A stretch of 64,000 bases of DNA, taken from NCBI RefSeq assembly GCF_010726085.1, contig NZ_AP022560.1:1054001-1118000 (forward strand). Reading direction: 5' to 3'. Made by a program: the position numbers and the translations under genes. This document shows, one piece after another, positions 18,026 to 31,303 of this stretch (positions are counted from its first letter, which is position 1; each line of letters begins with the position of its first letter). Origin of the DNA: Mycolicibacterium moriokaense (GTDB lineage: Bacteria > Actinomycetota > Actinomycetes > Mycobacteriales > Mycobacteriaceae). The notes under the pieces were generated by a model. It ran no database searches. It saw nothing but the letters and a program-made list of their open reading frames with translations, and was not told where the DNA came from.

Positions 18026-18613
18026 GACCGTGACGATAGACCGGAAAGTGATCCAGCAGTTGAACGATGCATGCGTGTCACCACGATCGTGTGCAAATGC
18101 GGCAGCCATATCCTTTCACATGTTAGCTAGCGCTTGGCTTGCTGCGGCCCTTAGTCAGGGACTCGCTCGCGTCTCACCGCAGCGATGCTTGGCACCGCCC
18201 GTATTGACGGCGCAGCAGGGTCAACGGTAGCCGTGCTCGACCCACCCCAATATTCGTGCGTCGACGCGGTCGTGCCGGCGACGCTGGGACAGCTCGCCCT
18301 GCCCCTGCCTGCAATGTGTCGGCTCCCGGTTTGTCACTTCCCTCAACAACAGACCCCCAGGTCCCGCAACCCAATCAACACTCCTCAACGCAACTACAAA
18401 CACTCCTACCGAACCCGAACCCCTCATGGTCCATAGCTCACTACTAATGCTTCCAAACCGACCATCAAAACCTTTGGATCACAACATAATTAGGGACCGG
18501 CACATTGGCACAAAGGTGTGCAATACTTGGCTTCGGGCGCTGGCGCGCCCGAACCCCGGCCGCCTGGCGGCGGCTTGTCCGGATTGGTGAGGTGCTCTGG
18601 TGGCGGTGCGACC
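18026..18613. other. Intergenic region with candidate oriT
   Basis: No gene is supported in these 588 bases before the relaxase. About 18335-18490 is strikingly poor in G on the plus strand and rich in C and A. Just beyond it are two inverted repeats: GCACA-AAGG-TGTGC at 18508-18521 and a perfect 9-bp stem TTCGGGCGC/GCGCCCGAA at 18532-18553 with a 4-base loop. Strand asymmetry plus hairpins next to a relaxase gene is the usual setting of an origin of transfer. The nick site cannot be placed from this sequence. Confidence 0.45.
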
Positions 18614-30015: not shown

Positions 30016-31303
30016 TCGGCGGGGTGGTGTCGAGGACCGCTGGCGCCGTGCAGACGGCAGTCCATCAGTACGTGCCGGAAAGGGGCGCCGCTGGCTGGCC
30101 CGCTACGTCGACGACCAGGGGCAAGAGAACACCAGGTCCTTCGATCGCAAATTGGATGCTCAAGCCTGGCTTGACGAAATCGTCGCCACGCAGGTCACTG
30201 GAACCTACGTGGCCCCAAAGGCCGGTCGCGTCAGCGTCGGCGAGCTTTACGCAAAGTGGCTCGGAACGCAGAGCCACCTCAAGAAAACCACCGCGTCGAC
30301 GCGAAGGTACACCTGGCCGGTGTACGTGGAGCCGCGTTGGTCAGCGGTGGCTGTTGCCGATGTCCAGGCGACCGATGTGCGGGGCTGGGTCCAGTCGATG
30401 ACATCATCCGGTGCGGGCCCGGCCACCGTCGAGAACGCCGTCGGCATCCTGCGCCAAATTCTGGAGATGGCAGTCGAGGATCGACGGATCGCGCGCAATC
30501 CATGCGCGGGGATCAAGCTTCCTCGCCGTAAGCGGCGGCCGCGCGGCTATCTGACGCATCGACAGGTGGAGCAACTCGCGATTGAAGTCGGGCCGGATGC
30601 GACGGTGGTGCGCTTCCTCGCCTACACGGGGCTGCGCTGGGGAGAGATGGCAGCGCTACGGGTCAGCGACGCCAAAATGCTTCGCCGACGAGTCCACGTG
30701 CGGGAATCAGTGACGGAGGTCGAGGGCCAACTGGAGTGGTCGTCACCCAAGTCCTATGAGCAACGGATGGTGCCCTTTCCCGCATTCCTTGCTGACGAAC
30801 TCGCTGCACTGATGATCGGCAAGAAACCCGATGACCTGATCTTCGCCGCGCCAGAGGGCGGGGTGCTGAGGGTGTCGAACTGGCGGCGCCGGGTGTTCGC
30901 GAAAGCGGTCAAGCGTCTCATCATGGAGGACGCGAGCTTCCCGGTGGTAACGCCGCACGATCTTCGTCATACCGCGGCGTCACTAGCCATTAGCGCCGGC
31001 GCCAACGTCAAGGCGGTGCAGACGATGTTGGGACACGCTTCGGCGGTGCTTACTTTGGACACGTATGCCGACCTGTTCCCCGATGATCTAGAGCTGGTTT
31101 CGGCGGCTCTGGACGATGCTCGAACCAAGTCTCTGGAACCCGCTGCGGACCAATTGCGGACTGGGACGGAAGAAGGCCCCGCACCGGATAACCGGTCAGG
31201 GCCCTCTACCTGCGAACACACGAGTCGGGGTGGCGGGATTCGAACCCACGACCTCTTCGTCCCGAACGAAGCACGCTACCAAGCTGCGCCACACCCCGCG
31301 TGA
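30002..31303 (+). CDS. int: Tyrosine integrase; C-terminus read through tRNA-Pro
   Basis: Site-specific recombinase of 433 codons. The N-terminal arm-binding region (RWLARYVDDQGQENTRSF) is followed by a SAM-like core-binding domain and the catalytic domain, with Arg in YTGLRWGEMAAL, HDLRHTAASLA, LGHASAVLTLDTY (H and the nucleophile Tyr). After about residue 400 the frame crosses the tRNA-Pro gene in antisense, giving GGGIRTHDLFVPNEARYQAA and a stop at 31301-31303 beyond the tRNA. The last ~25 residues are therefore chromosomal attachment-site sequence. The start overlaps the XRE gene. It explains integration of the element at this tRNA. Confidence 0.9.
   Translation: MQRRNRRGGVEDRWRRADGSPSVRAGKGRRWLARYVDDQGQENTRSFDRKLDAQAWLDEIVATQVTGTYVAPKAGRVSVGELYAKWLGTQSHLKKTTASTRRYTWPVYVEPRWSAVAVADVQATDVRGWVQSMTSSGAGPATVENAVGILRQILEMAVEDRRIARNPCAGIKLPRRKRRPRGYLTHRQVEQLAIEVGPDATVVRFLAYTGLRWGEMAALRVSDAKMLRRRVHVRESVTEVEGQLEWSSPKSYEQRMVPFPAFLADELAALMIGKKPDDLIFAAPEGGVLRVSNWRRRVFAKAVKRLIMEDASFPVVTPHDLRHTAASLAISAGANVKAVQTMLGHASAVLTLDTYADLFPDDLELVSAALDDARTKSLEPAADQLRTGTEEGPAPDNRSGPSTCEHTSRGGGIRTHDLFVPNEARYQAAPHPA
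31225..31298 (-). tRNA. tRNA-Pro(CGG), attachment site of the element
   Basis: A 74-nt cloverleaf on the minus strand. Acceptor arms CGGGGTG/CACCCCG pair, the anticodon stem CTTCG/CGAAG encloses the loop TTCGGGA with anticodon CGG, and the T loop is GTTCGAATC. Discriminator base A; CCA is not encoded. The tRNA 3' end points to the integrase, so the element inserted at the 3' end and regenerated the gene. It lies beside the cds1 homologue, where I recall a proline tRNA in M. tuberculosis. Confidence 0.95.

What the first reader, a model, noticed from the sequence alone, without database searches (positions are those of the whole stretch)
18026..31303. Integrated element combining a MobF relaxase with a type VII secretion-linked operon
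Between the candidate oriT and tRNA-Pro the sequence holds a relaxase-helicase, a coupled operon of a single-pass membrane protein, an 840-aa helical/linker/globular protein and a 158-aa protein, small genes, a partition-type RHH protein, a primase-helicase, Xis, XRE and Int. No T4SS or coupling protein is present. The operon order resembles Rv3898c-Rv3901c of the ESX-2 area (recalled). Linking DNA mobilisation genes with ESX-type proteins suggests either a mobilisable plasmid-derived element using the host's ESX machinery, or a surface/exclusion function carried as cargo. As far as I can tell this particular combination is not a named system.
Basis: partly seen in the sequence, partly recalled or inferred. 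Interest (0 to 1): 0.75.

Follow-up and report, generated by a model that had tools for sequence, protein, structure and literature searches.

The report
Mobile element carrying secretion-docking genes
A mycobacterial chromosome carries a mobile DNA element that brings its own DNA-transfer enzyme plus a two-gene set also found in the type VII secretion loci of large conjugative plasmids, which suggests how small mobile elements could hitch a ride on those plasmids.

Summary
The genes are as described, but the finding covers only the right end of the element. A perfect 44-bp repeat of the tRNA-Pro 3' end bounds a 112-kb island; elements of 22-48 kb use the same tRNA in three other genomes. The 840-aa protein is EspK-like: N-terminal helical domain, linker, C-terminal domain. 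EspK is the only PDB match of its C-domain profile below E=0.7 (1.4e-4). An upstream single-pass protein accompanies it in 93 of 108 rows. Homologues lie upstream of eccB/eccC on the same strand (42 of 42 ESX-linked) or tail-to-tail with mobF (35 of 36 MobF-linked), never both within the stretches read. Mobilizable and ESX copies interleave in the tree (9 changes, 8 forced). The genome has no VirD4-type coupling domain. Best reading: an integrative mobilizable element carrying a captured ESX docking adaptor for a helper ESX plasmid. The pairing is not unique: it recurs on small mycobacterial MOBF plasmids, though many MobF carriers lack it. What the adaptor binds is inferred; structure predictions never finished.

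The parts
18243..18517 (+). candidate oriT / mobF leader: conserved non-coding DNA with short inverted repeat 18258-18266/18276-18284
   Evidence: aligned with L184, L182, L178, L176; L176 homology starts at 18243. nic site not shown
18518..21451 (+). MobF (TrwC-type) relaxase-helicase, 977 aa
   Evidence: PF08751 2.4e-59, AAA_30 2.7e-51; NF041492 9.6e-74; dN/dS 0.16-0.21 in five comparisons
21463..21939 (-). 158-aa third protein; its family was found in 17 rows, all MobF-linked
   Evidence: no Pfam, NCBIfam or PHROGs family
21936..24458 (-). 840-aa EspK-like protein: N-domain ~1-175, Pro/Gly/Ala-rich linker, C-domain ~525-840
   Evidence: dN/dS 0.28-0.36
24446..25075 (-). 209-aa single-pass membrane protein with two spaced cysteines, upstream partner of the EspK-like gene
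   Evidence: homologue upstream in 93 of 108 rows; last two Cys 89-109 apart in 89 of the 90 with two Cys in the match
25296..25457 (-). 53-aa ORF at the edge of the block conserved on plasmids and integrated relatives
   Evidence: blastn blocks end near 25458 in L002, L177, L182, L184
25566..25853 (-). 95-aa ORF, no family
   Evidence: conserved in L182 (82%; dN/dS 0.155); no family hit
26681..28897 (-). Toprim primase, 738 aa, probably with a helicase part
   Evidence: PF13362 5e-13, phrog_6088 primase 3.6e-30, phrog_239 primase/helicase 8e-18; 95-97% in L176 and L184
29079..29276 (-). Xis-like 65 aa
   Evidence: 100% in L176 and L184, 72-75% beside other integrases; name by eye
29365..30015 (+). 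XRE regulator
   Evidence: PF01381 1.6e-10
30002..31303 (+). tyrosine integrase, 433 aa, 3' end runs through tRNA-Pro
   Evidence: PF00589 5e-20; 92-98% in G106, BiH015, GF69
31224..31267 (.). attR core, 44-bp perfect copy of attL (G000:C1:973186-973229, outside the window), inside tRNA-Pro(cgg) 31224-31298

Best explanation
An integrative mobilizable element (IME) of mycobacteria that transfers with a helper ESX (type VII) conjugative plasmid. Shown by sequence: Int with a tRNA-Pro 3' end duplicated as a 44-bp repeat; MobF relaxase; no coupling protein found; and a membrane protein plus EspK-like protein whose homologues, when not on MobF or integrated elements, lie upstream of eccB/eccC in ESX loci (42 rows; 25 further rows have no such neighbour in the stretch read). 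Inferred: Int/Xis excises the element, and MobF nicks an oriT upstream of its gene. The EspK-like protein then works as a docking adaptor. Its N-domain would engage the helper's EccC-type ATPase, as the EspK N-terminus is reported to contact EccCb1. Its C-domain would bind element-specific cargo, perhaps the 158-aa protein, MobF or a co-secreted partner, as EspK's C-domain binds EspB. The single-pass protein would act with it at the membrane. The pair moved between ESX loci and mobilizable elements several times, so an element's adaptor resembles that of one particular ESX type.
For: Two settings: of 108 EspK-like rows, 42 ESX-linked (42 of 42 upstream of eccB/eccC on the same strand; 27 within 3 kb) and 36 MobF-linked (35 tail-to-tail), none both within the stretches read. 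Of 79 fetched genome places: 20 MobF, 31 Ecc, 5 integrase only, 22 neither, 1 without the gene. By genome, of 148: 47 with both EspK-like and MobF matches, 3 EspK-like only, 20 MobF only, 78 neither. Tree of 108 rows: the ESX/mobilizable label is clustered (shuffled mean 27.4) yet needs 9 changes, 8 forced. Membrane partner upstream in 93 of 108; 10 of the other 15 are cut by a stretch end. Third gene differs by setting: 158-aa family in 17 rows, all MobF-linked; 253-274-aa family in 15 rows, 14 MobF- or Int-linked; a third family in 18-20 rows, 15 ESX-linked. In 11 of 19 mobilizable elements MobF is nearest (rank 1-2 of 18) to the relaxase of the ESX contig whose EspK-like gene is nearest; in 7 of 19 the adaptor matches an ESX type (66-88%) while the relaxase is of another class (27-30%), so the adaptor pairs with ESX independently. 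Against the window, C-domains of mobilizable relatives are 90-97% and of ESX relatives 48-51% identical, while N-domains are 70-97% and 65-73% (one remote ESX row L192 aside). EspK is the best PDB match. Seven genes tested are under purifying selection, dN/dS 0.05-0.38.
Against: No interaction, excision or transfer was tested; structure predictions did not finish. Many MobF carriers lack the gene: 20 of 67 MobF genomes, and at least half of the mycobacterial MobF plasmid records (59 records with the gene; 118 mycobacterial MobF records), so it is not required for every MobF element. Five integrated relatives carry the pair with no MobF found nearby (L080, L082-L085), and three of their genomes have no MobF match at all, so the pair need not act on MobF. 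ESX helpers already encode their own copy. The N/C contrast is a feature of the window clade and is blunted there by L174 (N-domain 97%); in L004, L054, L056, L097 the C-domain is as close to ESX as, or closer than, the N-domain of the same protein, when the ESX protein is the one nearest by C-domain. Six MobF-linked rows have none of the three downstream families. Homology to EspK and DUF5632 is remote. Mantel r is modest (0.31) and helped by near-copies; ESX relaxases were taken from the same contig, up to ~300 kb away or on a chromosome.
Confidence: 0.55

Rival explanations
1. Exclusion factor: the membrane protein and EspK-like protein mark the cell as occupied and block or modulate entry or export by a cognate ESX plasmid. 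ESX plasmids carry it for themselves; mobilizable elements carry it to protect their host cell or their helper relation.
For: The pair matches particular ESX types; the partner is a membrane protein with a two-cysteine domain; integrated elements without MobF also carry it.
Against: Position before eccB/eccC and likeness to the chaperone EspK fit an export role better; the tail-to-tail link to mobF in 35 of 36 MobF-linked rows is not predicted.
Confidence: 0.18
2. Secreted surface or effector protein carried as cargo: the 840-aa protein is an ESX substrate with a WXG/PPE-like N-domain, unrelated to DNA transfer.
For: N-terminal helical domain; a pMA100 homologue is annotated as WXG100 T7S target; mobilizable plasmids have been noted to encode WXG-100 proteins (PMC8092301, passages); many MobF carriers do without it.
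Against: Cargo would not be expected to keep a fixed place beside mobF or before ecc genes, nor its membrane partner in 93 of 108 rows; EspK, the closest solved protein, is described as a chaperone.
Confidence: 0.12
3. Helper remodelling, as in SGI1: the element supplies variant subunits that replace the helper's own parts in the mating machine, rather than docking its own cargo.
For: SGI1 is reported to reshape the IncC mating apparatus (PMC5389848, title and abstract start); here too the element carries homologues of helper-locus genes.
Against: No core ESX subunit was found, only the pair; the third gene differs between element and helper.
Confidence: 0.1
4. The element uses the host's chromosomal ESX rather than a helper plasmid.
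For: The genome has EccC-profile matches (8 listed, best 5e-231; some may be FtsK-like) and no VirD4-type domain; suggested for mobilizable plasmids in PMC8092301 (passages).
Against: The nearest ESX-linked homologues lie in plasmid records or on contigs with a VirD4-type domain (8 of 8 genomes chosen).
Confidence: 0.05

Closest known systems
EspK (Rv3879c), ESX-1 chaperone of EspB
   Same: Domain layout (helical N-domain with G-P-Y...W-P-x-T start, low-complexity linker, C-domain); only PDB match of the C-domain profile below E=0.7; homologues lie beside ESX genes on plasmids
   Different: Remote similarity; on this element it sits beside mobF with no ESX genes found; partners unknown
Rv3899c / DUF5632 proteins
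   Different: 0 of 20 stretches fetched for DUF5632 hits had MobF, 5 of 20 had ESX genes
Mobilizable mycobacterial MOBF plasmids (pMSPYR102, pTY81_02, pMAB23)
   Same: EspK-like gene convergent with mobF, with a membrane-protein gene before it
   Different: Free plasmids; the window version is integrated in tRNA-Pro
ESX conjugative plasmids (pCBMA213_2, pMYCCH.02, pJCM13574) and ICEMyc226
   Same: The plasmids carry homologues of the EspK-like gene just before eccB/eccCa
   Different: Carry ESX core genes and, in pCBMA213_2, an annotated TraM-recognition (VirD4-type) gene; ICEMyc226 known from PMC7478629 passages only, not searched for the pair
Salmonella genomic island 1
   Same: Integrated mobilizable island that depends on and interferes with one helper family
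   Different: Type IV helper, unrelated genes; known here from a listing only

Membership tests
Integrative mobilizable element | Site-specific integrase with attL/attR direct repeats | tested here: met
   44-bp perfect repeat, tRNA-Pro, syntenic flanks
Integrative mobilizable element | Own relaxase, no coupling protein or mating machinery | tested here: met
   MobF present; no Ecc or T4CP homologue in the island, no PF12696 in genome; VirB4 and TcpC not searched
Integrative mobilizable element | Excision and mobilization by a helper | not testable with these tools
   needs a bench test; same site used in 4 genomes with elements of different size
MOBF relaxases | TrwC domain fused to helicase | tested here: met
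   PF08751 and AAA_30; HxH motif seen by eye (motif recalled)
EspK family | N-domain/linker/C-domain with sequence similarity to EspK | tested here: inconclusive
   C-domain E=1.4e-4 to 8ako, hhalign prob 96 to a chromosomal EspK; N-motif prob 89; fold not compared
EspK family | Encoded in an ESX locus | tested here: not met
   window copy: no Ecc gene found in the island; met by the 42 ESX-linked homologues
EspK family | Binds EccC-type ATPase and a substrate | not testable with these tools
   -
DUF5632 | Pfam gathering score | tested here: not met
   18.1 bits against 25
ESX conjugative plasmid / ICE | EccBCDE, MycP, VirD4-type protein | tested here: not met
   control: PF12696 in 8 of 8 chosen ESX-plasmid genomes, 9 of 12 in all

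The most novel reading that the evidence does not exclude
Mycobacterial mobilizable plasmids and IMEs carry captured type VII docking adaptors. Each adaptor is matched to one class of helper ESX conjugation machine and links it to an otherwise interchangeable relaxosome, so adaptor type predicts which ESX plasmid moves which element.
Probability: 0.45. Interest if true: 0.87.

Novelty: new variant of a known kind. Interest (0 to 1): 0.7.

Why it matters
How small relaxase-only plasmids and islands move among mycobacteria is open; a published survey supposes that they may use host type VII systems (PMC8092301, passages). A specific, repeatedly exchanged gene pair beside the relaxase gives that idea a testable molecule, allows helper-element pairs to be predicted from sequence, and hints at how ESX takes part in DNA transfer. 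It also gives an unnamed gene family on nontuberculous-mycobacterial plasmids a candidate role.

Tried and rejected
Rejected: a 13-kb element ending near oriT (attL lies 112 kb from attR). A chance repeat as att site (44 bp perfect, only two copies in the 139 kb read, syntenic flanks). A unique combination. An ESX locus or T4CP hidden in the cargo: none found by tblastn; Pfam was run on 57 island proteins outside the window in two batches whose family lists stop at 25 of 32 and 25 of 40 and on 10 in the window, of 85 ORFs called, so Pfam coverage is partial. A common third gene: hhalign found no relation between the 158-aa, 253-274-aa and ESX-side families, and 44 rows with a picked downstream ORF belong to none of them. 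A general N/C-domain contrast: it belongs to the window clade. Crude neighbour picking for the membrane gene found a strong hydrophobic stretch in only 25 of 108 rows and was replaced by profile search. The quick tree was replaced by the careful one; three EspK-like hits of 150 residues or less were dropped before both (a second copy in L144, L119, L123). In one search, 69 of 108 rows entered the comparison (34 mobilizable, 35 ESX). In one search, 18 of the 31 ESX-linked places and 19 of the 36 MobF-linked rows were used, plus two unlabelled pairs in the Mantel test only.

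Full report
Observation. The window is G000:C1:1054001-1118000 of a 6.2-Mb single-contig genome, mycobacterial by the kin of its proteins.

Boundaries. Searching the genome with the tRNA-Pro end gave a second copy 112 kb to the left. The copies share a perfect 44-bp core at 973186-973229 and 1085224-1085267, with no third copy in the 139 kb read. DNA left of the left copy is syntenic with DNA left of tRNA-Pro in G011, G106 and G008, so this is attL. 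The same tRNA holds elements of about 45.6 kb in Mycolicibacterium sp. BiH015, 48.4 kb in Mycolicibacterium sp. GF69 and 22.1 kb in G106 (repeat cores 98-100% alike). Int is 92-98% alike in these; the G106 element has no MobF found. Cargo in the window's island includes MlaE/MlaD (Mce-type), acyl-CoA dehydrogenase, enoyl-CoA hydratase, P450, Rieske and carotenoid-oxygenase families. A second block, about 18.2-25.5 kb (MobF plus the operon), is shared with the free plasmid pMSPYR102 at 84.5% DNA identity. The element is thus a plasmid-type mobilization block joined to an integration block.

The 840-aa protein. Pfam gives only a sub-threshold DUF5632 hit (18.1 bits against 25). A profile of 19 C-domains finds one convincing PDB chain, EspK 8ako_B (E=1.4e-4; next 0.74). 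hhalign links it to a chromosomal EspK (prob 96; that protein matches 8ako at 6.9e-87) and to DUF5632 proteins (prob 93), whose profile finds Rv3899c 5IMU at 1.6e-61 (the Rv3899c name is from the paper below). Its N-domain is related to the N-domain of those DUF5632 proteins (prob 97) and shares the G-P-Y...W-P-E-T start with EspK (prob 89). In the EspB-EspK paper (PMC9811218, passages) the EspK C-domain binds EspB, the N-terminus is said to contact EccCb1, a flexible linker joins them, and an Rv3899c fragment is the best fold match.

Where relatives lie. tblastn found relatives in 59 plasmid records, all mycobacterial by organism name, and in 50 of 148 genus genomes. I fetched all 79 places outside the window's genome. 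In 20 a MobF lay in the fetched stretch, in 31 an EccB/C/D or MycP, in none both; 5 had an integrase only; 22 had neither (14 of these on stretches under 15 kb; L060, for example, has MobF 12 kb off); one match held no such gene. On ESX contigs a MobF often lies farther off (18 pairs used). By genome, 47 of 148 have both EspK-like and MobF matches, 3 the former only, 20 MobF only, 78 neither. Of plasmid records, 118 mycobacterial ones match MobF against 59 with the EspK-like gene, so many MobF plasmids lack it. Adding plasmid records and the 20 loci gave 108 usable rows: 36 MobF-linked, 35 of them tail-to-tail with mobF (exception L109), and 42 ESX-linked, all 42 upstream of eccB or eccC on the same strand, 23 within 1.5 kb and 27 within 3 kb; 5 rows have an integrase only and 25 none of these. 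Annotated examples: pCBMA213_2, pJCM13574 and pMYCCH.02 for ESX loci; pMSPYR102, pTY81_02, pMAB23 and an M. intracellulare plasmid for mobF. As a control, 20 stretches fetched for DUF5632 hits had MobF in 0 and ESX genes in 5.

The operon. A single-pass protein lies upstream in 93 of 108 rows, in both settings; 10 of the other 15 are cut by a stretch end. Of the 93, 90 have two or more cysteines in the match, and in 89 the last two are 89-109 residues apart. The gene downstream differs: the window's 158-aa family in 17 rows, all MobF-linked; a 253-274-aa family in 15 rows, 14 of them MobF- or Int-linked; another family in 18-20 rows, 15 of them ESX-linked; no similarity between the three; 44 rows, six of them MobF-linked, have none.

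Evolution. In the careful tree the ESX/mobilizable label changes 9 times, 8 forced by supported branches, 9-9 across bootstrap trees, against a shuffled mean of 27.4 (25 unlabelled rows not counted). The shuffles show clustering only; the repeated changes are what speak for exchange. Mobilizable clades sit beside different ESX clades. For 19 mobilizable elements and 18 ESX contigs, MobF and EspK-like distances correlate (Mantel r=0.31 on 39 pairs, 0 of 5000 permutations). In 11 of 19 the relaxase is nearest, or next nearest, to that of the same ESX contig; in 7 of 19 the EspK-like gene matches an ESX type while the relaxase is of another class; L096 lies between (rank 4). So the EspK-like gene tracks the ESX type even when the relaxase does not. 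Against the window, C-domains of the mobilizable loci are 90-97% identical and of ESX loci 48-51%, while N-domains are 70-97% and 65-73% (the 97% is L174, the others 70-80%; the remote ESX row L192 has 39 and 34%; several rows are partial). Over the 14 rows of the window clade the C-domain is 92-97% to the nearest other mobilizable copy and 50-52% to the nearest ESX copy; the N-domain is 71-82% to that same mobilizable copy and 69-75% to the ESX copy nearest by N-domain. Other clades do not show this contrast.

Mechanism. An adaptor with a helper-facing N-domain and an element-facing C-domain explains the fixed neighbours, the membrane partner, the ESX matching and, in part, the setting-specific third gene. 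What it binds is inference from EspK. The window's genome has no VirD4-type domain (the same test found one in 8 of 8 chosen ESX-plasmid genomes, on the contig of the ESX locus; of four other genomes, G106, G080 and G011 had none and G141 one on another contig), so the element would need an incoming helper. Against this, five integrated relatives have the pair but no MobF nearby, three of their genomes have none at all, and helpers already have their own copy.

Known or new. Searches for EspK with mobilizable plasmid (0 papers), EspK/relaxase/ESX (20 of 57 papers listed), integrative/MobF/ESX (15 of 15), relaxase/WXG100/adaptor (15 of 47), type VII/relaxase/mobilizable (25 of 116), pRAW/type VII (12 of 35) and DUF5632/Rv3899c (7 of 7) listed no paper whose title or abstract start describes this link; unlisted papers were not seen. 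Dedrick et al. (PMC8092301, passages) suggest that mobilizable plasmids may use host type VII systems and note WXG-100 proteins on them. Morgado and Vicente (PMC8190616 and PMC7478629, passages) describe mobilizable MOBF plasmids and an ESX-bearing ICE. A 2025 plasmid survey (PMC11877719, passages) lists WXG100, PPE and MobF among common plasmid proteins. A population study (PMC12584985, passages) notes a DUF5632 gene beside a tRNA as a recombination hotspot. Ummels et al. 2014 on pRAW was not held and is recalled only. The element is a new variant of a known kind; the captured-adaptor reading is the new part.

Noticed in passing
window 16077-17645 (-): WXG100 protein (PF06013, 3.7e-4, below its cut-off) followed by a 398-aa protein with an Abhydrolase_8 match (3.8e-4), a likely type VII substrate pair left of mobF; contiguous with mobF in L182 too.
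   Followed up: partly
window 13733-16131: Stretch missing in L182, where 12575-13732 abuts 16132; holds an rve-domain gene at 13784-14785, so probably an insertion sequence.
   Followed up: partly
L080, L082-L085: Integrated elements at tRNA-Leu(taa) or tRNA-Pro with Int, primase (seen in L082 and L085) and membrane/EspK-like/~256-aa genes but no MobF found.
   Followed up: partly
L165 (G012:C1:279856-288576): 8.6-kb element at the same tRNA-Pro with related Int (57%) and Xis (75%) but no EspK-like gene found.
   Followed up: partly
window 23524-23887: DNA identity to L176 and L184 drops from ~87-91% to ~75% near the linker/N-domain border and stays low through the membrane gene, as if that part were exchanged as a cassette.
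   Followed up: no
L052: EspK-like domain lies in a 2182-aa open frame in an ESX locus, perhaps a fusion.
   Followed up: no
L175: A contig labelled Microbacterium MAG carries the mycobacterial mobF block; probably mis-binned or a transfer.
   Followed up: no
L144 (pGP01): Plasmid holds two copies of mobF and of the recombinase and EspK-like genes, as in a tandem duplication.
   Followed up: no
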